A stretch of DNA of 64,000 bases. It comes from Cladopsammia gracilis. Taxonomy: Eukaryota; Cnidaria; Anthozoa; Scleractinia; Dendrophylliidae. The stretch's first letter is position 1. Every line of letters begins with the position of its first letter. Shown piece after piece: positions 10,410-55,112 of this stretch. Made by a program: the position numbers and the translations under genes. The stretch covers positions 1 to 64,000 of the forward strand of contig JAJGOT010000894.1 of assembly GCA_022457155.1 (NCBI GenBank). Direction: 5' to 3'. The notes under the pieces are model-generated. The model saw only the letters and a program-made list of their open reading frames with translations. It made no database searches and was not told the DNA's origin.

Positions 10410-10460
10410 GACCTCCCTCTGAGATATAGGGCAAATTGCCCTATATCTCAGAGGGAGGTC
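10410..10460. repeat. Perfect 51-bp palindrome at the broken edge of element X1
   Basis: Two 25-bp arms (gacctccctctgagatatag at the start) surround a single central A. It sits where sequence homologous to the X elements begins, so it may mark a repair or insertion junction. The motif ctccctatat also occurs in the fold-back element at 63011-63176. Confidence 0.8.
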
Positions 10461-10497
10461 TTGGTTTTTTTTGGTTGCTAAGAACGTCTGGCTCGTT

Positions 10498-11792
10498 ATG
10501 AAAGAGGAAAAGGCCGAGTACATTCAACGATACTACGAAAAGGAAGGTTTTCGCCTTGATGCCCAAAACGTGGAGTACAATCCAGGTCTGAGACAAGTGG
10601 CTAAGATCATACTCAACTCTATGTGGGGCAAGTTTGGCCAACAAGTAAACAAGACCCAAGTCAAAGAATTCGTCGACCATGTGGCTTTTCACAAGTTCCT
10701 GGACTCGGACAAGCATGACGTGAGATACGTGAATCCACTCAATGCAGATAGGGTAGAGGTACATTACAAACAGCAAGAGGGGGACGTCAGCGTATCACCT
10801 GAACATATTCATTGCTTGCTTCACCACTTGTTGGGCCCGATCACACTTATACGAAGCCCTGGAGCTCTTAGGAGAACGCTGTCTGTATTATGACACGGAC
10901 TCTGTCATTTTCATCAGTCGTCCCGGTGAAACCGACCCACCCCTCGGCGATTTTCTTGGAGAATTCAAACATGAATCCGTGAATCCATCATTGAATTCGT
11001 ACTATGGGTACCAGACCGTGCGAGGTGAAACTTGTTGCAAAGTTCGAGGTTTCAGCCTCAACAGTACAGTGAAAGAGCAGCCCAATTAAATTACCAAGTG
11101 ATTAGGCAAAATGTCCTCGACGAGGTACAGAAACCACTGAAGAACATGCGCCAAATTCAAGTCATCAAGAGCTTCCAAATACACCGGGATGCAAAACATT
11201 ATCATCTGGTCACCTTTCCAGAGTACAAGCAGTACCAGTTGGTTTACACAAAAAGAGTATTGGATCAGCTGACCTTTGCCACATACCCATATGGATACAA
11301 AGAAGAAGATGAATTGAACATCGACAATTTGTTGGATTTGTAAAGAGTCTGGGACGAGTGGTCACTAGGACCCTCACATACACCCGCGTGGAAATCAGGT
11401 TTTATTTTTTCACAAAATAAATTTTGTAAAATTTTAATCGTATGTGTGACGTTATTGACCTCGTTCACATGCGTGCGTGATATTGCGCAATGGCACTTGC
11501 CCGGGCATAGCTCTTTTTCGACCACAGATACGTTTCTATTTTACAGCTCGCAAGCGGCCATCTTGAATTCATTATCCACCCCTCAATTTGGCGCCATCTT
11601 GAATCTATTAACCAGAAGGGGCCATCTTGAATTCTTTATCCACCCCTCAATGCGCTTTTGCGCCATCTTGAATGTATTAATCCAGAAGGGGCCATCTTGA
11701 ATTCATTATCCACCCCTCAATGCGCTTCGGCGCCATCTTGAATCTATTAACCAAAAGGGCCACGCCCGTATGAACCGCTTGACATTACTACT
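10498..11792. mobile_element. Element X1: right half of a Polinton-derived fold-back element
   Basis: Homology to the other X copies begins near 10500, inside the polymerase fragment, and continues to the terminus CATTACTACT at 11783-11792. Between them lie the PolB fragment, an AT-rich tail, and about three copies of a repeat of about 68 bp (ggccatcttgaattcattat ... gcgccatcttgaatc). The left arm and central array are missing. The flank is CTTTCA (11793-11798), the same hexamer that follows X2. X1 lies within LINE-B, judged by the LINE-B coding sequence immediately to its right. Confidence 0.75.
10501..11343 (+). pseudogene. DNA polymerase B (protein-primed, Polinton type), C-terminal fragment, copy A
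   Basis: The first frame contains LNSMWGKFGQQ, which matches polymerase motif B (Kx3NSxxG) of family-B DNA polymerases. After a frameshift near 10800 the next frame contains LYYDTDSVIF, which matches catalytic motif C (DTDS). A further frameshift near 11085 leads to the thumb region, ending DELNIDNLLDL at a stop at 11341-11343. The exonuclease domain and motif A are absent. All five copies in this window share the frameshift before the motif-C segment, so the ancestor was already inactive when X spread. Polinton/Maverick origin is inferred from motif style together with the element ends. Confidence 0.8.
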
Positions 11793-11864
11793 CTTTCATG
11801 AGACTTAAAAGAGCATTCCTATAATTCGTCTCCTTCCACGGTAGTCCCCCACACTTATCTAGAC
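11793..11864 (-). pseudogene. LINE-B endonuclease fragment, copy 1
   Basis: Read on the minus strand, the sequence encodes a peptide containing SRLDKCGG and ETNYRNALLSLMK. It continues exactly from the LINE-B endonuclease that stops at 27193 (WNTGLSRLDK). This is the piece of LINE-B between the LINE-A insertion and the X1 insertion. Its right 14 bases (ACACTTATCTAGAC, 11851-11864) form one half of the LINE-A target duplication. Confidence 0.75.
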
Positions 11865-12007
11865 TACTGGGTTTTTTTTTCGTACACTGGCTGCCTACAA
11901 AAACATCTTGCCTCTAGGGATCAAAATAACAATCCTAGCAATCACTATAGGGCAAATAATGCAATTTAGTTTCTTGCAGGTGTCAGTCTTTTTCAATCCA
12001 TGGTGTG

Positions 12008-12670
12008 ATGACAAAATTTAAATCTATTATGTCTGAAACAAACACATTTCAAATTAAAGCGGTGACACTTAATGTCAGAGGTATGAATAGGTCCATCAAA
12101 AGGAGATCAATTTTCAGGTGGCTACACAATCAAAATGCGCATTTCCACTTTTTACAAGAAACTTATAGTGATGAAAACTCAAAAGCTATTTGGGAAGCAG
12201 AATGGGGTGGAAAAATATTTTGCAGCCACGGTACAAAACTTAGTAAAGGAGTCATGATTCTACTCAATCCAAAATCCGACATTGAGGTTGAAAGTTTTGA
12301 GGAAGACAAATGCGGAAGATTGATTATTCTCGATACGAAAGTTAATGGTTCCCACCTGATTGTCGTTAATGTTTATGCGCCGAATGATCTCTCGCAACAA
12401 GTACAATTTTTCGAAAATGTTAAGAACAAACTCTCAAAGTATGCAGATGAACCTATTATAATCGGCGGCGATTTTAACTGCGCTTTAACTGCCTCAGACA
12501 AAGTAGGTGGCAGACCAATAGAAAATAAAAAATGTGTCATTGACAAAATTGCAAATCTCTCCTCCTTCTATTCGTTACAAGACGTATGGCGTGAAATGAA
12601 TGCCGGTAAGAAGCAATTTACCTGGAGGGATAAGGCATACAAAGTGCAGTGCAGACTAGACTACTTTTAA
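12008..12670 (+). pseudogene. LINE-A ORF2 apurinic-like endonuclease domain, copy 1
   Basis: ORF2 would start at ATG 12008. Visible signatures of the APE-type endonuclease are TLNVRGM, FLQETYSD (catalytic Glu), VVNVYAPND, IIGGDFNCAL (Asp/Asn of the active site) and QCRLDYF. This domain nicks target DNA to prime reverse transcription. A TAA at 12668-12670 ends the frame; the duplicate copy at 20079 reads Leu-Thr-Ser onward there, so the stop is a private mutation of this copy. Confidence 0.85.
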
Positions 12671-13913
12671 ATATCTAAAAACCTTACTAATATCACTCGA
12701 AATTGCGATATCATTCATGCACCAAGTTCTGATCACTGCGCAGTTAAGCTATTTATCCAATCCGAAGTTCTAAACAAAAAACCTGGGCCTGGCTTCTGGA
12801 AGTTCAACGGTTCGCTTCTTGAGGATGAAGTGTATACTAAGGAGATTAAAAACAACATTAAAACTTATAGAGACAAATATGATTATTTGGCAGATAAAGG
12901 TCTGAAGTGGGAGCTTATAAAAATGGAACTGCGTGGCTTCACGATTGCTTACACTAAAGAGAAAGCCAAAAAGAACAGAGACACAGAAAGAGAGCTACAA
13001 GAACAATTAAATGACCTGTTGACACAGGCTGAACATTGTAAAAACAACCCTGTGCTCAGAACAAATATACAAATTTTACAAACGCGTTTAAAACGAATAA
13101 CAGAACAAAAAGTAAAAGGCGCGATGATACGAAGCAAAGCAAGGTGGGTTGAAAATGGCGAAAAAATACTAGATACTTTCTCAATCTAGAAAAAAGAAAA
13201 GCCGAAAAGAAAAGGATCGTTAAGTTAAAAAAAGACGATGGTTCCGAAACAGAAGAACAAAAAGATGTCATATTAAAAGAGGCGGAGAACTTTTACAAGT
13301 CTCTCTACAAGTCAGGAAATAATAACACAGAAAGTCCAGAAAGTGAAGCTTTCTTTAAAAATAAACTAATTAGGCCACTAAGCTCTGAAAAAGCGGATAT
13401 ATGCGAAGGCAAAATAACTAAAGAAGAGTGCCGACAAGCTCGCTGACAGAAATGCAAAATGGCAAGTCACCAGGGTCAGACGGTTTTACTTGCGAGTTTT
13501 TCAAAGCTTTTTGGGACGAAATTGGCGACGATGTAGTACAAAGCATCAACCACGCCTATGACAAAGGAGAATTGTCAATACGCCAAAAAAGAGGCGTCAT
13601 AACCCTCTTACCAAAAAAAGATAAACCGACTAACGTACTAAACAATTTAAGACCAATTACTCTTTTAAATATTGACTATAAAATTGCAACGAAAGTAATA
13701 GCCAATCGATTAGCAAAGGTCCTGCCTGACATCATAAGTCCAAATCAGACTGGATATGTAAAGAAGAGGTACATTGGCGAAAACGTCAGACTCATCGCTG
13801 ATATTATTAACTATGCAAAACTAAAGAAATTACCCGGAATAGCCGTTTTTATAGATTTCAAAAAAGCGTTTGACTCAATCGAATGGGACTACCTAAATAA
13901 AATACTGAACGTC
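12671..13913 (+). pseudogene. LINE-A ORF2 linker and N-terminal reverse transcriptase, copy 1
   Basis: Beyond the stop the coding sequence continues as a lysine/glutamate-rich linker (12830-13189). A one-base loss in an A run near 13165 breaks the frame, and the duplicate has the same break. RT fingers and palm follow: SPGSDGF, ITLLPKKDKP, NNLRPITLL, NQTGYVKKR and motif A FIDFKKAFDSI. A small insertion near 13437 disrupts the frame in this copy only. The frame is cut by X2 right after the motif-A helix. Confidence 0.8.
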
Positions 13914-14292
13914 AGTAGTAATGTCAAGCGGTTCATACGGGCGTGGCCCTTTTGGTTAATAGATTCAAGATGGCGCCAAAGCGCATTAAGGGGTGGATAA
14001 TGAATTCAAGATGGCCCCCTCTGGTTAATAGATTCAAGGTGGCGCCAAATTGAGGGGTGGATAATGAATTCAAGATGGCCGCTTGCGAGCTGTAAAATAG
14101 AAACGTATCTGTGGTCGAAAAAGAGCTATGCCTGGGCAAGTGCCATTCAGCAATATCACGCACGCATGGGAACGAGGTCAATAACGTCACATATACGATT
14201 AAAATTTTACAAAATTTATTTTGTGAAAAAATAAAACCTGATTTCCACGCGGGTGTATGTGAGGGCCCTAGTGACCACTCGTCCCAGACTCT

Positions 14293-15142
14293 TTACAAAT
14301 CCAACAAATTGTCGATGTTCAATTCATCTTCTTCTTTGTATCCATAATTTTTATGGGTATGTGGCAAAGGTCAGCGGATCCAATACTGTTTTTGTGTAAA
14401 CCAACTGTACTGCTTGTACTCTGGAAAGGTGAACAGATGATAATGTTTTGCATCCCGGTGTATTTGGAAGCTCTTGATGACTTGAATTTGGCGCATGTTC
14501 TTCAGTGGTTTCTGCACCTCGTCGAGGACATTTTGCCTAATCACTTGGTAATTTAATTGGGCCGCTCTTTCACTGTACTGTTGAGGCTGAAACCTCGAAC
14601 TTTGCAACAAGTTTCACCTCGCACGGTCTGGTACCCATAGTACGAATTCAATGATGGATTCACGGATTCATGTTTGAATTCTCCAAAAATCGCCGAGGGG
14701 TGGGTCGGTTTCACCGGGACGACTGATGAAAATGACACAGTCCGTGTCATAATACAGACAGCATTCTCCTAAGAGCTCCAGGGCTTCGTATAAGTGTGAT
14801 CGGGCCCAACAAGTGGTGAAGCAAGCAATGAATATGTTCAGGTGATACGCTGACGTCCCCCTCTTGCTGTTTGTAATGTACCTCTACCCTATCTGCAGTG
14901 AGTGGATTCACGTATCTCACGTCATGCTTGTCCGAGTCCAGGAATTTGTGAAAAGCCACATGGTCGACGAATTCTTTGACCTGGGTCTTGTTTACTTGTT
15001 GGCCAAACTTGCCCCACATAGAGTTGAGTATGATCTTAGCCACTTGTCTCAGACCTGGATTGAACTCCATGTTTTGGGCATCAAGGCGAAAACCTTCCTT
15101 TTCGTAGTATCGTTGAATGTACTCGGCCTTTTCCTCTTTGGT
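14293..15142 (-). pseudogene. DNA polymerase B C-terminal fragment, copy B
   Basis: This is the left-arm copy in X2, pointing outward on the minus strand. It retains the motif-B segment ILNSMWGKFGQQ in frame with the upstream helix. The shared frameshift separates it from the motif-C segment. A 14758-area stop ends the first frame, as in the other copies. Near the end, the local sequence cccataaaaattatgg replaces cccatatgg of copies A and E, an insertion also present in copy D and, slightly changed, in copy C. This points to exchange between arms. Confidence 0.75.
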
Positions 15143-15283
15143 CCCCGTCCAGCTGGCCAAACCTGACCAATCAGCACTTGTTATGACCAAATAAGGAAGT
15201 TGGCGTGGGTTAGGAACACATGGGGGAGGAGACAAATCTGACCAAACAGCACGTGTTATGACCAAATAAGGAAGTTGGCGTGA

Positions 15284-16494
15284 AGTTGCTCTGAGTTACT
15301 CTGAGTTGCTCGGAGTTGCTCTGAGTTGCTCCGAGTTGCTCCGAGTTGCTCCGAGTTGCTCCGAGTTGCTCCGAGTTGCTCCGAGTTGCTCTAAGTTGCT
15401 CCGAGTTGCTCCGAGTTGCTCCCAGTTGTTCTGAGTTGCTCTGAGTTGCTCCGAGTTGCTGCGAGTTGCTCCGAGTTGCTCCGAGTTGCTCCGAGTTGCT
15501 CCGAGTTGCTCTAAGTTGCTCCGAGTTGCTGCGAGTTGCTCTAAGTTGCTCCGAGTTGCTCTAAGTTGCTCTAAGTTGTTCCGAGTTGCTCCGAGTTGCT
15601 CCGAGTTGCTCCGAGTTGCTCTAAGTTGCTCCGAGTTGCTCTAAGTTGCTCTAAGTTGCTCCGAGTTGCTCTAAGTTGCTTCGAGTTGCTCTAAGTTGCT
15701 CTAAGTTGCTCCGAGTTGCTCCGAGTTGCTCCGAGTTGCTCCGAGTTGCTCCGAGTTGCTCTAAGTTGCTCTAAGTTGCTCTAAGTTGCTCCGAATTGCT
15801 CCGAGGTGCTCTAAGATGCTCTAAGGTGCTCCGAGTTGCTCTAAGTTGCTCCGAGTTGCTCCGAGTTGCTCTGAGCAAGTTAGAGCAACTTAGAGCAACT
15901 CGGAGCAACTAGGAGCAACTCGGAGCAACTCGGAGCAACTTAGAGCAACTCGGAGCAACTCAGAGCAACTGAGAGCAACTCGGAGCGACTTAGAGCAACT
16001 TAGAGCAACTCGGAGCAACTTAGAGCAACTCGGAGCAACTCAGAGCAACTCAGAGCAACTTAGAGCAACTCGGAGCAACTCGGAGCAACTCGGAGCAACT
16101 CGGAGCAACTCGGAGCAACTTAGAGCAACTCGGAGCAACTCGGAGCAACTCGGAGCAACTTAGAGCAACTTAGAGCAACTTAGAGCAACTCGGAGCAACT
16201 CGGAGCAACTCGGAGCAACTCGGAGCAACTCGGAGCAACTTAGAGCAACTCTGAGCAACTTAGAGCAACTTAGAGCAACTCGGAGTAACTTAGAGCAACT
16301 CGGAGCAACTCGGAACAACTTAGAGCAACTTAGAGCAACTTAGAGCAACTCGGAGCAACTTAGAGCAACTCGGAGCAACTCGGAGCAACTCGGAGCAACT
16401 CGGAGCAACTCGGAGCAACTCGGAGCAACTCGGAGCAACTCGCAGCAACTCAGAGCAACTCCAAGCAACTCAGAGTAACTCAGAGCAACTTCAC
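15284..16494. repeat. Head-to-head decamer arrays (CYRAGTTGCT)n and complement
   Basis: About 59 units of a 10-bp repeat (mostly ccgagttgct, ctaagttgct or ctgagttgct) run to about 15874 and then switch to the inverted complement (agcaactcgg and agcaacttag) for about 62 units. The two arrays form the centre of a giant palindrome. The units vary almost only at positions 2-3 (CG, TA, TG). Three units equal 30 bp, so frames through the array look like a 10-residue repeat (LLRVAPSCSE), but this is a by-product. Confidence 0.95.
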
Positions 16495-17236
16495 GCCAAC
16501 TTCCTTATTTGGTCATAACACGTGCTGTTTGGTCAGATTTGTCTCCTCCCCCATGTGTTCCTAACCCACGCCAACTTCCTTATTTGGTCAAAACAAGGGC
16601 TGATTGGTCAGGTTTGGCCTGCTGGACGGGGACCAAAGAGGAAAAGGCCGAGTACATTCAACGATACTACGAAAAGGAAGGTTTTCGCCTTGATGCCCAA
16701 AACATGGAGTACAATCCAGGTCTGAGACAAGGGCTAAGATCATACTCAACTCTATGTGGGGCAAGTTTGGCCAACAAGTAAACAAGACCCAGGTCAAAGA
16801 ATTCGTCGACCATGTGGCTTTTCACAAGTTCCTGGACTCGGACAAGCATGACGTGAGATACGTGAATCCACTCACTGCAGATAGGGTAGAGGTACATTAC
16901 AAACAGCAAGAGGGGGACGTCAGCGTATCACCTGAACATATTCATTGCTTGCTTCACCACTTGTTGTTCCCGATCACACTTATACGAAGCCCTGGAGCTC
17001 TTAGGAGAACGCTGTCTGTATTATGACACGGACTCTGTCATTTTCATCAGTCGTCCCGGTGAAACCGACCCACCCCTCGGCGATTTTCTTGGAGAATTCA
17101 AACATGAATCCGTGAATCCATCATTGAATTCGTACTATGGGTACCAGACCGTGCGAGGTGAAACTTGTTGCAAAGTTCGAGGTTTCAGCCTCAACAGTAC
17201 AGTGAAAGTTTGAAAAAAGTTATAAAAGCGCTTTTG

Positions 17237-17290
17237 AAACTAAATGTTCAGACGTTTCGGGACTTCTGTCCCTTCCTCAGTGAATAGCCG
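17237..17290 (-). ncRNA. Hammerhead ribozyme of the Penelope-like element
   Basis: On the minus strand the core elements occur in order: CUGAGGA (matches CUGANGA; plus 17274-17280), a stem-II hairpin GGGAC-AGAA-GUCCC (roughly 17259-17273), GAAA (17255-17258), then ACGUC with the expected cleavage after C (plus 17251). Stem I can form from UUCA (17281-17284) with UGAA (17247-17250), and after an internal loop GCUA (17285-17288) with UAGU (17239-17242). Stem III is the minimal self-complementary ACGU, a form reported to act as a dimer. Hammerheads of this kind are known in PLE terminal regions. Confidence 0.8.
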
Positions 17291-17369
17291 TTAACTGAAA
17301 ACGCGCGTCAGCTATTTAAATGTTCCAAATGTCGCCATGTCACAACATTGTAGCGCGCGCGGATGAAGT

Positions 17370-18399
17370 CTAAATAAAACTAAAGTCAATGTTCATGCCG
17401 TGTGGTTGGAGGGTTTGGCATTTGAAAATTAGACGACACTCCGCACTGCGTCTCTCCGTGGTACTTTCAAAACCTGTTGTAATCACGGAAACCATCATGT
17501 CATCGGTTGTGTGTCCAGGAGATGAGAAGTGTTTAGCGACGGGCAGATCTGCTTTCTTTCGTACCGATCTGAGATGCTCGCAGAATCTGTCGCCGAGCCT
17601 GCGTCCTGTTTCGCCGATGTAACACAGAGTACATGTACGACAGGCAATGATGTAGACGAGGTTACTGGTCGTACATGTGAACTTCTGTCGAATTGTCAAC
17701 GGCCCACCAGGAGTGTTGACCAGGGCCGCTGAACTGGTGTAGGCGCAGGTCTTGCAACGTGGACGGTGACAGGGAAAGGTTCCATTAGAGTCATCCCCCG
17801 TATTTGAGTTGGATTGAAGATTGCTGTGGACCAAGGAGTCTTTTAAATTGGAGTCGCGACGGTACGCACCGAGGACTCGCAAGCTACGGAAGATTTCCAT
17901 CGTATCAGGATCAGATTTGAGGATTTCAAAGTTTTTCGTAAGGATGTTCTTGACACAGCTGTTGGTGGGGTTGTAGGTAAGTATTAAGGGGATGACTTCT
18001 TTGTCGGTGCTTGCATCGTCAGATGGTCGCATTGCTGCCTCTCGGGAGATGGTGCTGACGCGTTGGAGGGCTCGATCTACGACTGTTGGGGGATAGTTAC
18101 GGTGCAGGAAGAAAGATGCCATTTCCTTGCTCTTGTTGATGAAGTCATTCTCATCACTGCATATCCGTTTAAGGCGGAGAAATTGGCTGTACGGAATGGA
18201 GTCTTTACAACGGACCGGGTGTGAAGATGAGTATGTGAGATACGAGTGAGAGTCGGTTTCTTTGTAGTGTATGGTCGTTGCTAATCCTTGAGCAGTAGGT
18301 TTCAGGAAGAGGTCTAGAAAAGGCAGTTGGTCGTCAGAGATGGACCAAGTGAACTTAAGGCTCGGGTGGAAGTTGTTGACAAAATTGGCAAAGTTGTCA
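17370..18399 (-). CDS. Penelope-like element ORF, C-terminal part with GIY-YIG endonuclease
   Basis: The open frame runs about 343 codons inside the element to a stop at 17370-17372; its first residues before this come from flanking DNA. It starts within the RT thumb/linker region (DDQLPFLDLFL, YKETDSHSYL, FLRLKRICSDE). A CHRPRCKTC zinc-knuckle-like motif follows, then the GIY-YIG nuclease core LVYIIACRTC...CYIGETGRR, then AKHFSSPGH and the terminal ERRSAECRLI segment. The nuclease nicks target DNA during insertion. The catalytic RT motifs lie upstream and are lost through 5' truncation, so this copy cannot move itself. Confidence 0.88.
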
Positions 18400-19205
18400 A
18401 GTACAGTGAAAGAGCGGCCCAATTAAATTACCAAGTGACGAGGCAAAATGTCCTCGACGAGGTGCAGAAACCACTGAAGAACATGCGCCAAATTCAAGTC
18501 ATCAAGAGCTTCCAAATACACCGGGATGCAAAACATTATCATCTGTTCACCTTTCCAGAGTACAAGCAGTACCAGTTGATTTACACAAAAACAGTATTGG
18601 ATCCGCTGACCTTTGCCACATACCCATAAAACTTATGGATACAAAGAAGAAGATGAATTGAACATCGACAATTTGTTGGATTTGTAAAGAGTCTGGGACG
18701 AGTGGTCACTAGGGCCCTCACATACACCCGCGTGGAAATCAGGTTTTATTTTTTCACAAAATAAATTTTGTAAAATTTTAATCGTATGTGTGACGTTATT
18801 GACCTCGTTCCCATGCGTGCGTGATATTGCGCAATGGCACTTGCCCGGGCATAGCTCTTTTTCGACCACAGATACGTTTCTATTTTACAGCTCGCAAGCG
18901 GCCATCTTGAATTCATTATCCACCCCTCAATTTGGCGCCATCTTGAATCTATTAACCAGAAGGGGCCATCTTGAATTCATTATCCACCCCTCAATGCGCT
19001 TTTGCGCCATCTTGAATATATTAATCCAGAAGGGGCCATCTTGAATTCATTATCCAACACTCAATGCGCTTTGGCGCCGTCTTGAATCTATTAACCAGTA
19101 GGGGCCATTTTGAATTCATTACCCACCCCTCAATGTGCTTTGGCGCCATCTTGAATCTATTAACCGAAAGGGCCACGCCCGTATGAACCGCTTGACATTA
19201 CTACT

Positions 19206-19277
19206 CTTTCATGAGACTTAAAAGAGCATTCCTATAATTCGTCTCCTTCCACGGTAGTGCCCCAGACTTATCTAGAC
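19206..19277 (-). pseudogene. LINE-B endonuclease fragment, copy 2
   Basis: This is a duplicate of 11793-11864, starting with the same CTTTCA and ending at the LINE-A 5' junction. Small substitutions distinguish it (agtgccccagactt instead of agtcccccacactt). Its presence shows that the duplicated unit started at the X/LINE-B boundary. Confidence 0.75.
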
Positions 19278-21320
19278 TACTGGGTTTTTTTCGTACACTG
19301 GCTGCCTACAAAAACATCTTGCCTCTAGGGATAAAATAACAATCCTAGCAATCACTATAGGGCAAATAATGCAATTTAGTTTCTTGCAGGTGTCAGTCTT
19401 TTTCAATCCATGGTGTGATGACAAAATTTAAATCTATTATGTCTGAAACAAACACATTTCAAATTAAAGCGGTGACACTTAATGTCAGAGGTATGAATAG
19501 GTCCATCAAAAGGAGATCAATTTTCAGGTGGCTACACAATCAAAATGCGCATTTCCACTTTTTACAAGAAACTTATAGTGATGAAAACTCAAAAGCTATT
19601 TGGGAAGCAGAATGGGGTGGAAAAATATTTTGCAGCCACGGTATAAAACATAGTAAAGGAGTCATGATTCTACTCAATCCAAAATCCGACATTGAGGTTG
19701 AAAGTTTTGAGGAAGACAAATGCGGAAGATTGATTATTCTCGATACGAAAGTTAATGGTTCCCACCTGATTGTCGTTAATGTTTATGCGCCGAATGATCT
19801 CTCGCAACAAGTACAATTTTTCGAAAATGTTAAGAACAAACTCTCAAAGTATGCAGATGAACCTATTATAATCGGCGGCGATTTTAACTGCGCTTTAACT
19901 GCCTCAGACAAAGTAGGTGGCAGACCAATAGAAAATAAAAAAATGTGTCATTGACAAAATTGCAAATCTCTCCTCCCTTTATTCGTTACAAGACGTATGG
20001 CGTGAAATGAATGCCGGTAAGAAGCAATTTACCTGGAGGGATAAGGCATACAAAGTGCAGTGCAGACTAGACTACTTTTTAACATCTAAAACCCTTACTA
20101 ATATCACTCGAAATTGCGATATCATTCATGCACCAAGTTCTGATTACTGCGCAGTTAAGCTATTTATCCAATCCGAAGTTCTAAACAAAAAACCTGGGCC
20201 TGGCTTCTGGAAGTTCAACGGTTCGCTTCTTGAGGATGAAGTGTATACTAAAGAGATTCAAAACAACATTAAAACTTATAGAGACAAATATGATTATTTG
20301 GCAGATAAAGGTCTGAAGTGGGAGCTTATAAAAATGGAACTGCGTGGCTTCACGATTGCTTACACTAAAGAGAAAGCCAAAAAGAACAGAGACACAGAAA
20401 GAGAGCTACAAGAACAATTAAATGACCTGTTGACACAGGCTGAACATTGTAAAAACAACCCTGTGCTCAGAACAAATATACAAATTTTACAAACGCGTTT
20501 AAAACGAATAACAGAACAAAAAGTAAAAGGCGCGATGATACGAAGCAAAGCAAGGTGGGTTGAAAATGGCGAAAAAATACTAGATACTTTCTCAATCTAG
20601 AAAAAAGAAAAGCCGAAAAGAAAAGGATCGTTAAGTTAAAAAAAGACGATGGTTCCGAAACAGAAGACCGAGATGTCATATTAAAAGAGGCGGAGAACTT
20701 TTACAAGTCTCTCCACAAGTCAGGAAATAATAACACAGAAAGTCCAGAAAGTGAAGCTTTCTTTAAAAATAAACTAATTAGGCCACTAAGCTCTGAAAAA
20801 GCGGATATATGCGAAGGCAAAATAACTAAAGAAGAGTGCCGACAAGCTCTGACGGAAATGCAAAATGGCAAGTCACCAGGGTCAGACGGTTTTACTTGCG
20901 AGTTTTTCAAAGCTTTTTGGGACGAAATTGGCGACGATGTAGTACAAAGCATCAACCACGCCTATGACAAAGGAGAATTGTCAATACGCCAAAAAAGAGG
21001 CGTCATAACCCTCTTACCAAAAAAAGATAAACCGACTAACGTACTAAACAATTTAAGACCAATTACTCTTTTAAATATTGACTATAAAATTGCAACGAAA
21101 GTAATAGCCAATCGATTAGCAAAGGTCCTGCCTGACATCATAAGTCCAAATCAGACTGGATATGTAAAGAAGAGGTACATTGGCGAAAACGTCAGACTCA
21201 TCGCTGATATTATTAATTATGCAAAACTAAAGAAATTACCCGGAATAGCCGTTTTTATAGATTTCAAAAAAAGCGTTTGACTCAATCGAAAGGGACTACC
21301 TAAATAAAATACTGAACGTC
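19278..21320 (+). mobile_element. LINE-A 5' half, copy 2 (duplicate of 11865-13913)
   Basis: This is nearly identical to copy 1 and also ends at AACGTC (21315-21320), where X3 begins. The EN frame starts at ATG 19418 and is broken near 19942 by one extra A in an A run. It continues in another frame from 20007, where the RLDYFLTS segment is intact. The frameshift in gaaaaaatac near 20573 is shared with copy 1 and therefore predates the duplication. RT motif A is disrupted by an extra A near 21268. Both copies are dead. Confidence 0.85.
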
Positions 21321-21774
21321 AGTAGTAATGTCAAGCGGTTCATACGGGCGTGGCCCTTTTGGTTAATAGATTCAAGATGGCGCCAAAGCGCATTGAGGGG
21401 TGGATAATGAATTCAAGATGGCCCCTACTGGTTAATAGATGCAAGATGGCGCCAAAGCGCATTGAGGGGTGGATAATTAATTCAAGATGGCCCCTTCTGG
21501 ATTAATATATTCAAGATGGCGCCAAAGCGCATTGAGGGGTGGATAATGAATTCAAGATGGCCGCTTGCGAACTGTAAAATAGAAACGTATCTGTGGTCGA
21601 AAAAGAGCTATGCCCGGGCAAGTGCCATTGCGCAATATCACGCACGCATGGGAACGAGGTCAATAACGTCACACATACGATTAAAGTTTTACAAAATTTA
21701 TTTTGTGAAAAAATAAAACCTGATTTCCACGCGGGTGTATGTGAGGGTCCTAGTGACCACTCGTCCCAGACTCT

Positions 21775-22624
21775 TTACAAATCCAACAAATTGTCGATGT
21801 TCAATTCATCTTCTTCTTTGTATCCATAATTTTTATGGGTATGTGGCAAAGGTCAGCGGATCCAATACTGTTTTTGTGTAAACCAACTGGTAGTGCTTGT
21901 ACTCTGAAAAGGTGAACAGATGATAATGTTTTGCATCCCGGTGTATTTGGAACTCTTGATGACTTGAATTTGGCGCATGTTCTTCAGTGGTTTCTGCACC
22001 TCGTCGAGGACATTTTGCCTGATCACTTGGCAATTTAATTGGGCCACTCTTTCACTGTACTGTTGAGGCTGAAACCTCGAACTTTGCAACAAGTTTCACC
22101 TCGCACGGTCTGGTACCCATAGTACGAATTCAATGATGGATTCACGGATTCATGTTTGAATTCTCCAAGAAAATCGCCGAGGGGTGGGTCGGTTTCACCG
22201 GGACGACTGATGAAAATGACAGAGTCCGTGTCATAATACAGACAGCGTTCTCCTAAGAGCTCCAGGGCTTCGTATAAGTGTGATCGGGCCCAACAAGTGG
22301 TGAAGCAAGCAATGGATATGTTCAGGTGATACGCTGACGTCCCCCTCTTGCTGTTTGTAATGTACCTCTACCCTATCTGCAGTGAGTGGATTCACGTATC
22401 TCACGTCATGCTTGTCCGAGTCCAGGAACTTGTGAAAAGCCACATGGTCGACGAATTCTTTGACCTGGGTCTTGTTTACTTGTTGGCCAAACTTGCCCCA
22501 CATAGAGTTGAGTATGATCTTAGTCACTTGTCTCAGACCTGGATTGTACTCCATGTTTTGGGCATCAAGGCGAAAACCTTCCTTTTCGTAGTATCGTTGA
22601 ATGTACTCGGCCTTTTCCTCTTTG
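21775..22624 (-). pseudogene. DNA polymerase B C-terminal fragment, copy D
   Basis: This left-arm copy of X3 lies on the minus strand, with intact motif-B segment KIILNSMWGKFGQQ and the shared frameshift before motif C. The last part from about 22090 to 21775 is in a third frame, with an additional one-base loss (near 21953) compared with copy B. Like B it has cccataaaaattatgg near 21830. Confidence 0.75.
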
Positions 22625-22765
22625 GTCCCCGTCCAGCTGGCCAAACCTGACCAATCAGCCTTGTTATGACCAAATAAGGAAGTTGGCGTGGGTTAGGAAC
22701 ACATGGGGGAGGAGACAAACCTGACCAAACAGCACGTGTTATGACCAAATAAGGAAGTTGGCGTG

Positions 22766-23796
22766 AAGTTGCTCTGAGCTACTCTGAGTTGCTCTGAGTT
22801 GCTCCGAGTTGCTCCGAGTTGCTCCGAGTTGCTCCGAGTTGCTCTAAGTTGCTCCAAGTTGCTCCGAGTTGCTCTAAGTTGCTCCGAGTTGCTCTAAGTT
22901 GCTCTAAGTTGTTCCGAGTTGCTCCGAGTTGCTCCGAGTTGCTCTAAGTTGCTCCGAGTTGCTCTAAGTTGCTCTAAGTTGTTCCGAGTTGCTCCGAGTT
23001 GCTCCGAGTTGCTCTAAGTTGCTCCGAGTTGCTCTAACTTGCTCCGAGTTCCTCCGAGTTGCTCTAAGCAACATAGAGCAACTAGGAGCAACTCGGTGCA
23101 ACTTAGAGCAACTCGGAGCAACTCAGAGCAATTTAGAGCAACTCGGAGCAACTTAGAGCAACTTAGAGCAACTCGGAGCAACTTATAGCAACTCAGAGTG
23201 ACTCAGAGCAACTTAGAGCCCCTCGGAGCAACTCGGAGCAACTCGGAGCAACTTAGAGCAACTCGGAGCAACTCGGAGCAACTCGGAGCAACTCGGAGCA
23301 ACGTAGAGCAACTCGGAGCAACTTAGAGGAACTTAGAGCAACTCGGAGCAACTCAGAGCAACTCGGAGCAACTCGGAGCAACTCGGCGCAACTCGGAGCA
23401 ACTCGGAGCAACTTAGAGCAACTCGGAGCAACTCGGAGCACCGTAGAGCAACTCGGAGCAACTTAGGGCAACTTAGAGCAACTCGGAGCAACTTAGAGCA
23501 ACTCGGAGCAACCCGGAGCAACTCGGAGCAACTCGGAACAACTTAGAGCAACTTAGAGCAACTCGGAGCAACTCAGAGCAACTCGGAGCAACTTAGAGCA
23601 ACTCGGAGTAACTCGGAGCAACTCGGAGCAACTCGGAGCAACTCGGAACAACTCAGAGCAACTCGGAGTAACTCGGGGCAACTCGGAGCAACTTAGAGCA
23701 ACTCGTAGCAACTCGGAGCAACTCGGAGCAACTCGCAGCAACTCGGAGCAACTCAGAGCAACTCCGAGCAACTCAGAGTAACTCAGAGCAACTTCA
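22766..23796. repeat. Head-to-head decamer arrays in X3
   Basis: About 30 units in the GTTGCT orientation run to about 23067, followed by about 73 units in the AGCAAC orientation. The two sides are far less equal in length than in X2, which shows independent expansion or contraction of each side. Several units carry private variants (cgtagagcaa, ctcggcgcaa, cccggagcaa). Confidence 0.95.
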
Positions 23797-23937
23797 CGCC
23801 AACTTCCTTATTTGGTCATAACACGTGCTGTTTGGTCAGGTTTGTCTCCTCCCCCATGTGTTCCTAACCCACGCCAACTTGCTTATTTGGTCATAACAAG
23901 TGCTGATTGGTCAGGTTTGGCGAGCTGGACGGGGACC

Positions 23938-24762
23938 AAAGAGGAAAAGGCCGAGCACATTCAACGATACTACGAAAAGGAAGGTTTTCGCCTTGATGCC
24001 CAAAACATGGAGTACAATCCAGGTCTGAGACAAGGGCTAAGATCATACTCAACTCTATGTGGGGTAAGTTTGACCCAGGTCAAAGAATTCGTCGACCATG
24101 TGACTTTTCACAAGTTCCTGGACTCGGACAAGCATGACGTGAGATACGTGAATCCACTAACTGCAGATAGGGTAGAGGTACATTACAAACAGCAAGAGGG
24201 GGACGTCAGCGTATCACCTGAACATATTCATTGCTTGCTTCACCACTTGTTGGGCCCGATCACACTTGTACGAAGCCCTAGAGCTCTTAGGAGAACGCTG
24301 TCTGTATTATGACACGGACTCTGTCATTTTCATCAGTCGTCCCGGTGAAACCGACCCACCCCTCAGCGATTTTCTTGGAGAATTCAAACATGAATCCGTG
24401 AATCCATCATTGAATTCGTACTATGGGTACCAGACCGTGCGAGGTGAAACTTGTTGCAAAGTTCGAGGTTTCAGCCTCAACAGTACAGTGAAAGAGCGGC
24501 CCAATTAAATTACCAAGTGATGAGGCAAAATGTCCTCGACGAGGTGCAGAAACCACTGAAGAACATGCGCCAAATTCAAGTCATCAAGAGCTTCCAAATA
24601 CACCGGGATGCAAAACATTATCATCTGTTCACCTTTCCAGAGTACAAGCAGTACCAGTTGGTTTATATAAAAAGAGTATTGGATCCGCTGACCTTTGCCA
24701 CATACCCATATGGATACAAAGAAGAAGATGAATTGAACATCGACAATTTGTTGGATTTGTAA
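23938..24762 (+). pseudogene. DNA polymerase B C-terminal fragment, copy E
   Basis: This is the right-arm copy of X3. The one-base deletion after 'ctgagacaag' is shared with copy C. A private deletion of about 17 bp removes the sequence after 'aagtttg' near 24067, destroying part of the motif-B helix. The motif-C frame (YYDTDSVIF, from about 24266) and the thumb frame ending DELNIDNLLDL at 24762 remain readable. Confidence 0.75.
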
Positions 24763-25147
24763 AGAGTCTGGGACGAGTGGTCACTAGGACCCTCACATAC
24801 ACCCGTGTGGAAATCAGGTTTTATTTTTTCACAAAATAAATTTTGTAAAATTTTAATCGTATGTGTGACGTTATTGACCTCGTTCCCATGCGTGCGTGAT
24901 ATTGCGCAATGGCACTTGCCCGGGCATAGCTCTTTTTCGACCACAGATACGTTTCTATTTTACAGCTCGCAAGCGGCCATCTTGAATTCATTATCCACCC
25001 CTCAATTTGGCGCCATCTTGAATCTATTAACCAGTAGGGGCCATCTAGAATTCATTATCCACCCCTCAATGCGCTTTGGCGCCATCTTGAATCTATTAAC
25101 CAAAAGGGCCACGCCCGTATGAACCGCTTGACATTACTACTAACGTC

Positions 25148-26116
25148 TTTAATTTCAAAGATGACTTCAAGAAGTGGATACGGGTTTTCTATACAGACAT
25201 ATCAAGCTGCGTAATAAACGATGGCTTCGCTTCTCCCTTTTTTAACCTCAATCGTGGAGTAAGACAAGGTTGCCCTTTATCAGGGTTACTTTTTATGTTA
25301 GGAATAGAAATGCTAAACCTGGCCATCCAAGCGAATCCTGATATTAAAGGGTGTAATGTCGGAAAGAAACAAATAAAAATTACCTTATACGCAGATGACA
25401 CTACTATCTTTGTCAAAGATCTAAGCTCGGTAACAGCGCTACTTGACACTTTAGAAAATTTCAAAAATTGTTCCGGTTTGGAGCTAAATAAATCCAAAAC
25501 GGAAGCCATGTGGCTCGGCTTGTGGGCAGACAGGAAAGATACACCGTTTGGTTTCCGCTGGCCAGAAATCTCCGTGTATGCTTTAGGAATTCACTTTTCT
25601 AACGATAAACGCATTAACGATAAACTCAACTTTGAAAAGAAACTAGAAGACCTTCAAAAAATTCTGAATTCATGGAAAAGAAGGAAGTTAACACTCCTGG
25701 GAAGAATTAATATTGTTAAGACGTTGGGCCTCTCTAAACTCATATATAATGCTTCGGTCTTACCATTACCAGAGGAATTCGCTAAACAGGTAGACAAAAT
25801 CACCTTCGATTTTGTTTGGGAAGGTAAACCCCACAAAATCAAAAAAGCTACACTTATAGGCGAAAAAAGCGATGGCGGCCTAAAGATGGTAGAATTCGAC
25901 TCGATAAATAAGGCTCTAAAAGCTTCTTGGGTTAGAAGATTCAATAATGACGCTGACTCACCTTGGAAAATTATTCCAAATTTCACAACACGTGAGTCAG
26001 GCGGCTTCCAATTCCTACTGTCTTGCAATTACAAGGCAAAAGAATTACAAGCAAACGATATTCCCATTTTCTATCTAAAAATACTTAATTACTGGGAACA
26101 GATTAAAAAAAATTAA
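25148..26116 (+). pseudogene. LINE-A reverse transcriptase, C-terminal half (motifs B and C, thumb)
   Basis: The frame starts with FNFKDDFKKWIRVFY, then NRGVRQGCPLSGLLF (motif B) and TLYADDTTIF (motif C, catalytic YADD), followed by the thumb (LNKSKTEAMWLG, WKRRKLTLLGRINIVKTL). It stops at about 26114. It copies LINE RNA into DNA at the nicked target in an intact element. Here it is separated from its N-terminal half and from the EN domain by more than 11 kb of inserted and duplicated sequence. Confidence 0.88.
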
Positions 26117-27918: not shown

Positions 27919-28719
27919 TCAAGATAAACTATAATTTTTTAAGTCTTCTTCCGTATCGATTTTAATTGCAGCCTTGGTCGCTGGATTTAGTTTAATAAAA
28001 ATTTTCCCATCTGTTGTCCAAACTCTCCATTCTTTGTGCTGGCGCTTTTTATCACGTAATGTTTTGAATAATCCGGCTCTTTGGGCTGTAAGATTTTCAT
28101 TTATGTAGATTTTTTCTGCGCCTGAAAGGTGTTGGACGTTTGCTCTGCGTAGTTTCCTGCGGTTCCGATACATTTTATCTTTGCTGTGATAATTATTGAA
28201 ACGCACAATTATTGGTTTTGGTTGAGTTTCCCCCCTCTTAAAACGATGGACTATGTCTATATCTTCCGGATACAAGTCTATGTCCATACTCTCTGCCAAC
28301 TTAATAATTGTCTCTTCAAGATCTTCATCTTCCACTTCGGGAATCCCAAATATTTCTAAATTCACCTTTCTCGTATATTGTTCGAGATCATCCAGTTTTT
28401 TCTCCAAAGACTCAATTTGCGCAATCTTTTCCTGTAGCTTAGTGCTCATCTCTTCCTTATTAGTATCGATTTTTTCATTCAAACCAGAGTTCTTCTTTTC
28501 CAAGTTCTTCACTTTCTTGTGTAGATCCGAGTTGCTTTTAGTAAGTTCATCTGTTTTGGCTTGTGAAAAGTCGAGAGATTCGCGCAGCTCTTTATAGTTG
28601 TTCTGTAATACTTTAAGATCGTTAATCAAGCTGTTGATGTTATTTTCAATTCGCATTAAAGCCTTCCACATGTCTGACAAAGAATGGGTCCCTTCTTCGT
28701 GTTCGACAGAATCCGCCAT
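27919..28719 (-). CDS. LINE-B ORF1, coiled-coil RNA-binding protein
   Basis: An intact 266-codon frame starts at ATG 28719. Residues from about 10 to 125 are a long coiled coil (ELRESLDFSQAKTDELTKS, KKVKNLEKKNSGLNEKID, SLEKKLDDLEQ). An L1 ORF1p-like RRM region follows (YTRKVNLEIFGIPE, DIDIVHRFKRGE, PIIVRFNNY) and then a basic C-terminal domain (KKRQHKEWRVWTTDGKIFIK). In L1 elements this protein trimerises through the coil and coats the element RNA. It sits about 280 bp upstream of ORF2 on the same strand. Surprisingly it is unbroken, while its ORF2 is shredded. Confidence 0.85.
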   Translation of the reverse strand: MADSVEHEEGTHSLSDMWKALMRIENNINSLINDLKVLQNNYKELRESLDFSQAKTDELTKSNSDLHKKVKNLEKKNSGLNEKIDTNKEEMSTKLQEKIAQIESLEKKLDDLEQYTRKVNLEIFGIPEVEDEDLEETIIKLAESMDIDLYPEDIDIVHRFKRGETQPKPIIVRFNNYHSKDKMYRNRRKLRRANVQHLSGAEKIYINENLTAQRAGLFKTLRDKKRQHKEWRVWTTDGKIFIKLNPATKAAIKIDTEEDLKNYSLS

Positions 28720-29235: not shown

Positions 29236-31978
29236 TTAAGCATGGCTACCTTGAACAACTACATTTTTTACAAGTTCATCAAGCGCATCAATGAAAGTTT
29301 TTTTCCTTGCTTGTGAACCTTTCACTTCGAGATGGAGATCTTGGCATATCGACTTTAGCTGAGCCAACTTCAGACTTTTCAGATTTTTTTTCTTTTGAAA
29401 ACTTACAGATGTTAACCTGTTCAACTTCGATGGGATGCTGGAGCTCGAACATCTCCTGATGGATGGCAATCAGCAAATCTTGGCGAGTCATCTCTGCTTC
29501 CAGTGCTTCTACATCTTCCTCGTAGACCTCGTTTCCCGCATTCATCTCTTTCAATTTAGCGCTATGCCTGGAGAAAAAGCTTTTAATCTGCTGTGTTTTT
29601 TTTTTCACTCACAGGGTTCAAAGAAAAGTTTCCCATCCTCATCTTTTTTTCACTTTCATTTCTTTGGACACTGCAACTGGATCAGCTTTATTACCGGTCC
29701 TTTGTCCCTCTTCGAACTTCTCGCTCAGATATACTTTCACTTTTTCTTCAAATCTCTTCTTCTCTTTGACTGTTTTAAGGGCCCAGCCCATCTTCTGAGA
29801 AGGAGTGCTACGTTTGGCAGGCTCACCAGATGGCTGCTCTACGGTAGTAAGGGATGGCTGGTATTCTGGTTGGCTTATCCCTGTTACTCTGTCGGCCCAT
29901 TTCTTCCTGATGGTGTCATACAAAGAAACTGACTCTAACTCTTTCACGTGCATCCCGATATCCATGTGAGCTTGGGCCTCTTCTTCTGTTTTGAATGTCA
30001 GGATGCAGTTGTTCTCGTTACAGCCAAAGATTTCACTGATACCGGTAGCAGTACTCGCTCGAATTACGCCTCGCTCTTTCTGTCGTGGGGCAAAGGGAAG
30101 AATCACTTTAAAGTCATCGATTCTCTGCTTTCTAAATTCATTGTAGGGCAGGTGTTTACCTTTGCCAATCCTATATGCCTTCCAGACTCTGACTCCTTTT
30201 TCCTCATACATGAAATTGTAAAGCAGGCTGATACCTGGTATATTGTTAAAGGCGTCATCAAGATCTTTGGAGCTATCAATTTCCACCACAGAAACTGGGC
30301 ATCCTGTCAGCCCTCTATGTGATTCAATGGCTGTCTTCATGTCCTCTGCTGTGGTGACGTCGTGGTTTTCGTTGACATAGCGTCGTATGTGGGCCTTCAT
30401 GGGGGCAGTTTTACGGTCACAAATGTCTTTTCCAGCTTGGGGATCGGAAAAGTCATAGCGAATTACAGACACCCCAGTGCGTTTGCCTATGTCAGCAAGG
30501 TAGACGATAAGCGGGCCATTGTGGTAGCATCTTGCGTTGTCCGATCTTAGGTACGCCTGGGTGATAAGAGGATACTCTGCTTTGATGGTCTTGAACAGGT
30601 GGTCAAGAAGAGATGCCACTGCATAGTTGTTTTGCGTACAAGCATTGAAAATGTAAACGAAGCACTCCACTTCATAGTTTTCCTCCCTCCTAGTGACAAC
30701 TGCACTGACATGCCAGCTGAGGCCACGCTTTCCGAAGAACTCGCTCATACTCTCTCTGTACTTCATGGGAAGAAACTTCATCGCCCAATCGACAATAATC
30801 AAGCACGTCTGTTGGTCAAGCTTACTCATGGCATCTTGTTTTGCCTCTTCCTGCAAAAACGTTCTCAACAAATGGGCTTTCCATGCGCGGATAAAAAGTC
30901 AAAATGTGTTCTGTTTCTCTGCTGTTCATCTATTGAAATACTTTTGATTTTTTCTTCAACATCTTTCAAGGTGAATTCGAGAGACTCACAGCGATCACAT
31001 TCGATGTCGTGCTTATGTGAGCATTTAGTCTGGTATTCTTGTCTTTGATCACTCAGAGCGTACGTCGAGCAGTGATCGGGACAGTTTTCTTCACGTCCAA
31101 CATGGGCCTTGTAATCTGTCTTCAAGTATCGTTTTGCTTCTTTGATGTTGTTTTTGATGGTCTTTGCCCATGACTCGTCTGCTCCGTACTCGACCATTGT
31201 TTGTGTTGGAATCATCAAGTTATCGATGGCTTCTGTTCCTTCAGCTGTGATGTTATCTAAACCTTGCAGGGACTTCTGCATCGAGGCGCTTCAGACATCT
31301 AGTATTCTGTACAAGGACCTCTCACCGGCTGGCTCGAACTGTTGTTGGTTACAGTACGAGAGGTATCGGTCAATGATTCGAGTGGGAATCAGTGTTCGCA
31401 CAACAGCTGGAATAATTATTTGTTTTCCAGAATCCAGTTTCATTGTCTTGGTGCCGAAGGCCACGTCTTGCAGGAATTCTGGTCTTGAAACAAAATCAAG
31501 GAAGTGATGTACTTTTGCGTGCCCAATCTTGTTCTAAAAATCTGTTTGTCTGGAATAGGTTGTCCTTTCCCTGACTTTGTGGCATGGTCACGGGCTTGGT
31601 CAATTCGCCACTTTGTCAGACCCGGTATTATCCTTTGGAGTTCTGAACGGCTAAAATCGTTAGCAAATATGGACAAAATCTGACGTTTTGTTTGCCACGT
31701 TTGAGCATCATTGTGGGCCTTGACCAGGGCATCTATAAGATCTGATTCGATATCAAAGTGCTTTGGCGTTGTTTCTTTTGATTCTCCGTCTGTCTGATTG
31801 ATTTCCAAAGTTGTTCCTCTTGCCCTGGACTGATAACTGATAAGGTGGTAATGAACATTTCTTTTGCTTTTCTCAAATAGTACTTTTGCTGGGTAGAAGA
31901 AATGTCATTCCATTCAGTATTCAATGTAGACTGGAGAGGACTTACACGGCCGTCTGTCACACTACCAAAAGCATCGTT
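29236..31978 (-). pseudogene. DDE-type transposase-like gene with a C-terminal SAP-like segment, multiply broken
   Basis: From 5' to 3' on the minus strand: an acceptor-like ttttggtag precedes SVTDGRVSPLQS (about 31960). The coding sequence continues to about 31540, shifts frame (FLDFVSRPEFLQDVAFG, about 31500), meets an in-frame TGA near 31297, then passes a Cys/His-rich region (CPDHCSTYAL, CSHKHDIECDRCESL; about 31080-30980). After a frameshift near 30890 the longest frame reads LIIVDWAMKFLP, YLRSDNARCYHNG and YVNENHD, candidate positions for acidic catalytic residues of an RNase-H fold. Near 29400-29240 KLAQLKSICQDLHLEVKG resembles a SAP DNA-binding helix pair. The superfamily was not identified. 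At least four breaks make it non-functional. Confidence 0.7.
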
Positions 31979-54992: not shown

Positions 54993-55112
54993 GGCCCGGT
55001 TCAAACGTCGAACTTCACATGTGCCGAACCTAATGCAAATGAGAAAAATCTATCGTTCTTTCTCATTTGCATTAGGTTCAGCACATGTGAAGTTCGACGT
55101 TTGAACCGGGCC
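54993..55112. mobile_element. 120-bp PIF/Harbinger-type MITE, satellite copy 1
   Basis: Same element as 9344-9463 with a few changes. TTA occurs on both sides (54990-54992 and 55113-55115). Neighbouring satellite units show the empty site gagatttagttttc with one TTA. Confidence 0.88.

What the first reader, a model, noticed from the sequence alone, without database searches (positions are those of the whole stretch)
13914..25141. A fold-back Polinton derivative: AG...CT ends, 6-bp duplications, dead PolB in both arms
X2 and X3 start AGTAGTAATG and end CATTACTACT; X3 is flanked by AACGTC on both sides, and excising it restores the LINE-A frame. These ends and a 6-bp duplication are Polinton/Maverick hallmarks, and the arms carry motif B and motif C of a protein-primed family-B polymerase. 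Instead of a 15-20 kb self-synthesising element, this is a 3.8-4.1 kb palindrome consisting of the polymerase end duplicated head to head. I know of no named non-autonomous Polinton family of this shape.
Basis: partly seen in the sequence, partly recalled or inferred. Interest (0 to 1): 0.82.

Follow-up and report, generated by a model that had tools for sequence, protein, structure and literature searches.

The report
Palindromic, helper-dependent Polinton fragment
A 4-kilobase hairpin-shaped mobile DNA, apparently built from one end of a large virus-like transposon copied twice in mirror image around a dead polymerase gene, has inserted into a retrotransposon, probably in a sea anemone or coral relative.

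Summary
Largely confirmed. X3 (21321-25141, 3821 bp) is a real palindromic insertion: ends AGTAGTAATG/CATTACTACT, exact 6-bp duplication AACGTC, splitting a LINE reverse transcriptase that is open again across joined flanks. Its arms are 98.1% identical over 1346 ungapped positions and hold pieces of a broken polymerase (PF03175 above cut-off in X1 and the X3 left arm). The ends match the (AGT)2//(ACT)2 plus 6-bp signature printed for vertebrate Mavericks. Corrections: the interval is not one element. X2 (13914-19205) has no duplication (AACGTC left, CTTTCA right) and contains a 1.19-kb Penelope-like insert; X1 (10501-11792) is a half copy. A ~7.4-kb tandem duplication by recombination between two X copies would explain this, so only one target duplication is demonstrable. 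All five arms share a frame break, form a near-star phylogeny and change evenly over codon positions: the polymerase was dead before the arms diverged. Best reading: a helper-dependent, snap-back derivative of a Polinton. Helper and further copies could not be sought: the host-genome search did not complete (17 attempts). Eight literature searches of one open-access library listed no such family. New variant of a known kind.

The parts
10501..11792 (.). X1: right half only of an X element (one arm, terminus at 11792, right flank CTTTCA)
   Evidence: long blastn pieces to X2/X3 arms 96-99%; flank
10498..10890 (+). PolB piece with motif B (NSMWGKFGQ) in X1
   Evidence: PF03175 E 4e-7 for 10450-10890; 30 homologues, best by E-value 60% identical over 75% of the piece
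10757..11086 (+). PolB piece with motif C (YYDTDSVIF) in X1, another frame than the motif-B piece
   Evidence: 63% identical over 60 aa to P0003; no Pfam hit of its own
11793..13913 (+). LINE-A 5' part, copy 1 (with ~190 bp of upstream sequence)
   Evidence: 98.7% identical to 19206-21320; RVT_1 positions 2-88
13914..19205 (.). X2: palindromic element, flanked AACGTC on the left and CTTTCA on the right (no duplication)
13914..15283 (+). X2 left arm: terminus, ~64-70-bp subterminal repeats, reversed PolB 3' part
   Evidence: tandem repeats, alignment of arms
15284..15875 (+). X2 left 10-bp tandem array (AGTTGCTCCG), 59 units
15883..16490 (-). X2 right 10-bp tandem array, inverted, 60 units
17209..18399 (-). 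Insert in X2 right arm: 3' part of a retroelement with a GIY-YIG domain (Penelope-like, name recalled); 13-bp repeat AGTACAGTGAAAG at 17196-17208 and 18400-18412
   Evidence: GIY-YIG E 1.9e-4, just under the curated cut-off; flanks
19206..21320 (+). LINE-A 5' part, copy 2
21315..21320 (+). Target-site duplication AACGTC, left of X3
21321..25141 (.). X3: palindromic element, 3821 bp
21321..22766 (+). X3 left arm
22234..22692 (-). PolB motif-B piece in X3 left arm
   Evidence: PF03175 E 1.1e-6
22038..22367 (-). PolB motif-C piece in X3 left arm (shifted frame)
   Evidence: stop-free pieces; frames
22767..23064 (+). X3 left 10-bp array, 29 units
23065..23075 (.). Centre of the X3 palindrome: the two arrays abut with no unique spacer
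   Evidence: centre sequence
23076..23793 (-). X3 right 10-bp array, 71 units
23794..25141 (-). X3 right arm; PolB pieces 24176-24505(+) and 24448-24759(+), no Pfam hit of their own
25142..25147 (+). Target-site duplication AACGTC, right of X3
25142..26116 (+). LINE-A, further part of the reverse transcriptase (RVT_1 positions 96-193)

Best explanation
X is a short, helper-dependent derivative of a Polinton/Maverick: the end of the parent that carries the 3' part of its polymerase gene, joined to an inverted copy of itself inside a 10-bp tandem array, so that both ends of the ~4-kb element are the same terminus. SHOWN: palindromic form; (AGT)2//(ACT)2 ends; one exact 6-bp target duplication in a LINE; polymerase sequence with PF03175 matches in two arms; the same frame break in all five arms; X copies with two different right flanks (AACGTC and CTTTCA). 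INFERRED: two insertion sites, one inside and one upstream of the LINE, and a later tandem duplication that made X2 a mosaic; a parent that replicated outside the chromosome by protein-primed synthesis; a strand growing from the polymerase end that switched template and copied itself back (snap-back), as in defective genomes of other linear DNA viruses; and, because both ends kept the replication and integrase signals, spread with polymerase and integrase supplied in trans by an intact Polinton.
For: End motif and 6-bp duplication equal those printed for intact vertebrate Mavericks (PMC8097293). X3 splits the LINE reverse transcriptase: RVT_1 2-88 | 96-193, open frame across the joined flanks. 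PF03175 above cut-off in X1 and X3L. The only PDB match of the homologue profile is the protein-primed phi29 polymerase, weak (E 0.031, 22 positions). Frame change between the hinge after motif B and motif C: read directly in 4 of 5 arms; in X2L the motif-C string was not matched, but the alignment has no gap there in any arm and the next piece fits once its own 2-bp gap is allowed for. A second change follows in 4 of 4 arms not interrupted there. Variable sites in the coding pieces fall 10/10/12 on codon positions 1/2/3 (32 sites), so no sign of coding constraint since the arms diverged. Near-star phylogeny: 49 single-arm substitutions against 2 shared by two arms and 1 multi-state column, gapped columns left out. 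Array unit order exceeds all 200 shuffles in 3 of 6 arm pairs (X2L-X3L, X2L-X3R, X3L-X3R), so at least part of the array existed before those arms diverged. Parallels: self-complementary snapback genomes of AAV (passages of PMC8235507); adenovirus incomplete particles with duplicated left ends (recalled).
Against: No helper, integrase, ATPase, protease or capsid gene was seen with these ends. No confirmed match to terminus, subterminal repeat, array or PolB in viral contigs. Only one insertion has both flanks. The motif-B piece of X3R and the C-terminal pieces have no Pfam match, and the C-terminal piece found no homologue. The palindrome could have arisen by a chromosomal event rather than during replication. 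In X2 the two arms share one substitution (column 498), and with X3L share the states of a 7-bp indel and of a second substitution (columns 577-583, 620) against X1R and X3R, so arm-to-arm conversion may occur and could mimic common descent. Array order is near chance in 2 of 6 pairs (X2R-X3L, X2R-X3R: 45 and 51 of 200 shuffles as good) and only moderately beyond it in X2L-X2R (5 of 200).
Confidence: 0.55

Rival explanations
1. Same Polinton-derived, helper-dependent element, but the palindrome arose in the chromosome (fold-back repair of a break, or deletion between two head-to-head Polinton copies) and was only afterwards mobilised.
For: Possible arm-to-arm conversion in X2 and the tandem X-LINE-X arrangement suggest that recombination acts on these sequences in the chromosome. 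A palindromic hAT-derived MITE is described in Atlantic cod (passages of PMC12368964).
Against: No trace of two different parents; arms meet inside a homogeneous array with no spacer. Nothing here decides against it.
Confidence: 0.22
2. A fold-back (FB/Galileo/Tetris-like) transposon whose long inverted repeats with tandem arrays evolved in the usual fold-back way, and which captured a polymerase fragment; mobilised by a cut-and-paste transposase rather than a Polinton integrase.
For: Long inverted repeats with inner tandem arrays resemble fold-back elements (recalled; Tetris, PMC4079207, seen only as a listing).
Against: Ends and 6-bp duplication match Mavericks specifically, and the only above-cut-off Pfam match in X is a PF03175 polymerase. 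FB-type duplications are longer (recalled).
Confidence: 0.1
3. An ordinary degraded Polinton: two partly deleted copies in head-to-head orientation, not a mobile palindrome; copies multiplied only by the local tandem duplication.
For: 96% of vertebrate Maverick loci in one survey are decayed (PMC8097293, passages).
Against: X3 as a whole palindrome is bounded by one target duplication inside a LINE, so it inserted as a unit; the CTTTCA flank of X1 and X2 points to a second site.
Confidence: 0.08
4. Assembly artefact: haplotypes or reads falsely joined through a palindrome.
For: Palindromes and arrays are hard to assemble; LINE copies are 98.7% identical, as two haplotypes might be.
Against: X3 has exact ends and an exact target duplication; X2 carries its own insert with a 13-bp repeat.
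Confidence: 0.05

Closest known systems
Polinton/Maverick (vertebrate Mavericks of PMC8097293)
   Same: (AGT)2//(ACT)2 termini, 6-bp target duplication, family-B polymerase sequence of the PF03175 kind
   Different: 3.8-4.1 kb instead of 12.7-24.6 kb; no integrase, ATPase, protease or capsid gene found; PolB broken and present in mirror image; PolB 3' end faces the terminus, whereas modules of vertebrate Mavericks generally point to the centre, with the cane toad as an exception
AAV snapback (SBG) defective genomes (PMC8235507, passages)
   Same: One genome end duplicated as a self-complementary molecule carrying part of the replication gene; replicates only with helper functions
   Different: Parvovirus, not protein-primed; not a germline family with target duplications
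Adenovirus incomplete-particle genomes with duplicated left end (recalled)
   Same: Protein-primed linear genome giving palindromes of one end
   Different: Not integrated; recalled, not read here
Fold-back transposons (FB, Galileo, Tetris; recalled)
   Same: Long inverted repeats with inner tandem arrays
   Different: Other ends and other transposases (recalled); no Polinton polymerase
gadMor-hAT-1784 palindromic MITE of Atlantic cod (PMC12368964, passages)
   Same: Palindromic non-autonomous derivative of a larger DNA transposon
   Different: hAT, not Polinton

Membership tests
Polinton/Maverick | 6-bp target-site duplication | tested here: met
   X3: AACGTC on both sides, LINE frame open across it. 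X2 fails (AACGTC/CTTTCA), explained by inference as a recombination mosaic; X1 not testable. So 1 of 1 insertion with both original flanks.
Polinton/Maverick | Terminal motif (AGT)2//(ACT)2 or (AG)3//(CT)3 | tested here: met
   AGTAGT...ACTACT in X2 and X3, and ACTACT at the X1 end,
Polinton/Maverick | Terminal inverted repeats | tested here: met
   Arms of ~1.35-1.45 kb plus arrays; the whole element is inverted repeat, more than the 46-1447 bp printed
[quoted passage not shown]
   PF03175 motif-B pieces in X1 and X3L; motif C by homology; broken in all arms; X3R motif-B piece without Pfam match. Protein priming rests on family; the PDB match is weak
Polinton/Maverick | Retroviral-type integrase, ATPase, protease, capsid genes | tested here: not met
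   X3 has 40 stop-free six-frame pieces of 50 aa or more; 33 of 40 were scanned against Pfam (3, 30). Only PF03175 passed its cut-off; sub-threshold chance-like matches were SPP1_GP23-1, IlvB_leader, Fer4_NDSU1 and Homeobox_KN. Seven pieces of 51-54 aa were not sent. Not an autonomous Polinton.
Polinton/Maverick | Size 12.7-24.6 kb (vertebrate intact elements) | tested here: not met
   3821 bp (X3)
Polinton/Maverick | Same termini as an autonomous element in the host | not tested
   The genome search 'own' did not complete (17 calls)
Fold-back (FB-like) transposon | Long inverted repeats built of tandem arrays | tested here: met
   Arrays of 29-71 10-bp units
Fold-back (FB-like) transposon | Ends and duplication length of FB/Galileo | tested here: not met
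   6-bp duplication and AGTAGT ends; FB values recalled
Defective (snap-back) viral genome | Formed by strand switching during extrachromosomal replication | not testable with these tools
   Only the integrated end product is seen

The most novel reading that the evidence does not exclude
Polintons throw off adenovirus-style snap-back defective genomes which, unlike those of viruses, are integrated by the parent's integrase and persist as a heritable family of palindromic satellites. Read-through transcription of such a palindrome would give a long polymerase hairpin RNA, so X may also act as a natural RNA-silencing trap against its parent.
Probability: 0.15. Interest if true: 0.8.

Novelty: new variant of a known kind. 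Interest (0 to 1): 0.5.

Why it matters
Protein-primed replication of Polintons is inferred from their genes (established knowledge, recalled); a family of integrated one-end palindromes is what strand switching in such replication would leave behind, so X offers a genomic fossil by which the replication model can be tested (distribution of centres, shared ends with helpers, extrachromosomal forms). It would also be a helper-dependent Polinton derivative of a shape that the searches here did not find described.

Tried and rejected
Rejected: X2 as evidence for a second 6-bp duplication (flanks differ). Rejected: one 11-kb element (two X copies and a LINE block). Considered and dropped: a functional PolB reached by programmed frameshift; more than one break, even codon-position change and pieces in different frames speak against it.

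Led nowhere: search for the PolB C-terminal piece (no candidate); viral-contig scans for PolB (3, 11 and 21 pattern matches, none confirmed), terminus (34), subterminal repeat (58) and array (59): 0 each; genome-contig scan with A1 gave one 32-residue match in a Prevotella MAG (L001), not followed; AlphaFold model of the P0003 alignment was poor (mean pLDDT 57.4, pTM 0.29) and was not used for a fold search; PDB search of the motif-C piece gave only two matches at E 0.34 and 0.37. The like phase of the X2 and X3 centres is not counted as evidence for one origin, since X2 may be a local duplicate of X3.

Literature: ten searches of one open-access library, seen as listings with the start of each abstract: eight on Polintons/Mavericks and two on palindromic or snapback viral genomes. 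One search listed 20 of 40 papers. The exact phrases non-autonomous/nonautonomous Polinton/Maverick gave no paper; one search's three hits hold only 'Polinton-derived'. Polinton with 'defective interfering' gave one review on astrovirology. Read as passages: PMC8097293 (also its section 7), PMC6431247, PMC8235507, PMC12368964, PMC5182062. Kapitonov and Jurka 2006 is not held, and Repbase could not be searched, so a Repbase entry of this shape cannot be excluded.
Full report
What is there. Self-comparison of the window shows an ordered series: X1 (10501-11792), LINE-A 5' part (11793-13913), X2 (13914-19205), LINE-A 5' part again (19206-21320), X3 (21321-25141), then more of LINE-A (25142-26116). 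X3 is a 3821-bp palindrome: left arm 21321-22766, a 10-bp tandem array of 29 units, the inverted array of 71 units, right arm 23794-25141. The arrays meet with no unique spacer. X2 has the same plan but is 5292 bp, because a 1191-bp piece of a retroelement with a GIY-YIG domain (recalled as Penelope-like; E 1.9e-4, just under the Pfam cut-off) sits in its right arm between 13-bp repeats.

Insertion. X3 begins AGTAGTAATG, ends CATTACTACT and lies between two AACGTC copies. The chance of an exact 6-bp match at given positions is about 1 in 4096 (inference). The LINE reverse transcriptase is cut by it: RVT_1 positions 2-88 on the left and 96-193 on the right, and with one AACGTC kept the joined frame holds only its terminal stop. 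For that join the left flank came from LINE copy 1, because copy 2 has its own frameshift upstream of the site (read); the 20 bases before X are the same in both.

Why X2 has no duplication. X2 is flanked by AACGTC on the left, as X3 is, but by CTTTCATGAG on the right, as X1 is. Crossing-over between an X inside the LINE and another X upstream of the LINE would leave this: a ~7.4-kb tandem duplication whose middle X is a mosaic. The LINE blocks are 98.7% identical over 2123 aligned positions. The explanation is inferred; an assembly effect is not excluded. On this reading the window holds two insertion sites and one testable target duplication.

Arms. Five arms were aligned (the X2 right arm as two parts put end to end). 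Pairwise ungapped identity is 97.8-98.4%, as high between elements as within one. Among columns without gaps 49 substitutions belong to one arm, 2 are shared by two arms and 1 is multi-state. So the arms diverged from nearly one sequence at nearly one time. A 7-bp indel and the two shared substitutions suggest some arm-to-arm exchange in X2. Subterminal repeat number differs between the two arms of one element. Array unit order exceeds all 200 shuffles in 3 of 6 arm pairs, 195 of 200 in one, and is near chance in two.

Polymerase. The motif-B pieces of X1 and X3L match PF03175 (E 4e-7 and 1.1e-6, above cut-off); the X3R counterpart, which has a 17-bp deletion, does not. A database search gave 30 homologues, 42-77% identical over 26-98% of the piece, found only among short proteins because of the tool's length limit. 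The motif-C piece had no Pfam hit in 3 of 3 arms tested, but matches P0003 (63% over 60 aa) and P0021 (59% over 59 aa) downstream of their motif B. The C-terminal piece had no Pfam hit in X1 or X3R and no homologue. The frame changes between hinge and motif C: read directly in 4 of 5 arms; in X2L the motif-C string was not matched, but no arm has a gap there and its next piece fits once its own 2-bp gap is allowed for. It changes again further on in 4 of 4 arms not interrupted there. The 32 variable sites in the coding pieces fall 10/10/12 on the three codon positions. The gene was therefore most likely dead in the common ancestor of the arms and has drifted since; any spread after that needed enzymes from elsewhere.

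Other genes. Of 40 six-frame stop-free pieces of 50 aa or more in X3, 33 were scanned against Pfam. None matched an integrase, ATPase, protease or capsid protein; the sub-threshold matches (SPP1_GP23-1, IlvB_leader, Fer4_NDSU1, Homeobox_KN) look like chance. Seven pieces of 51-54 aa were not sent.

Family. Vertebrate Mavericks are printed with (AGT)2//(ACT)2 ends, 6-bp duplications, 46-1447-bp inverted repeats and 12.7-24.6 kb. X meets the first two exactly, exceeds the third and fails the fourth, and lacks the other genes. It is not an autonomous Polinton; that it derives from one is well supported by ends, duplication and polymerase together. A profile of the homologues has one PDB match, the phi29 polymerase, weakly (E 0.031). 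The AlphaFold model was too poor to use.

How it most likely works. A Polinton replicating outside the chromosome by protein priming is expected to be open to strand switching; copying back from inside the 10-bp array would give a linear molecule with the polymerase-side terminus at both ends. Such a molecule keeps whatever the polymerase and integrase recognise, so a helper could copy and insert it. Snap-back genomes of AAV, with part of the replication gene and helper dependence, are an observed parallel (passages of PMC8235507); the adenovirus parallel is recalled. The strand-switching origin is inferred, and a chromosomal origin of the palindrome cannot be excluded.

Host. An unrelated 410-aa ORF (29639-30871, minus strand) has 326 homologues, of which 120 were listed. 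Fifteen of these carry an organism name, 13 of them from Acropora, Paramuricea, Actinostola or Stylophora (anthozoans, recalled) and one each from Branchiostoma and Lineus. An anthozoan host is likely, not shown.

Limits. Nothing in the viral collection was confirmed. Literature claims rest on eight searches of one open-access library, mostly seen as listings; Repbase and the founding Polinton paper were not available.

Noticed in passing
29639-30871 (-): 410-aa ORF without Pfam match; 326 homologues, 13 of the 15 organism-named ones among the 120 listed are anthozoan; one is labelled Transposon Tf2-6 poly.
   Followed up: partly
9343-9464, 54992-55113, 55282-55403: Three copies of a 122-bp palindromic element (AGGCCCGGTTCAAACGTCG...), two of them inside a 169-bp satellite.
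   Followed up: partly
4161-6128: 118-bp satellite, 16.7 copies.
   Followed up: no
7301-9344: Direct duplication of ~0.98 kb, 97% identical.
   Followed up: no
1429-2004; 3217-3499; 63011-63176: Further fold-back segments of 576, 283 and 166 bp, 84-88% self-complementary; no evident exact target duplication in the 25 bases printed on each side.
   Followed up: partly
17209-18399: Truncated retroelement with GIY-YIG domain inserted in the X2 right arm, 13-bp flanking repeats.
   Followed up: partly
P0009, P0017 (homologues): By eye in the alignment, two homologues of the PolB piece also seem to change frame near the same place between motif B and motif C; the length limit of the search favours such truncated proteins.
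   Followed up: no
27919-28719 (-): 266-aa coiled-coil-like ORF resembling an L1-type ORF1 (recalled; listed, not tested).
   Followed up: no
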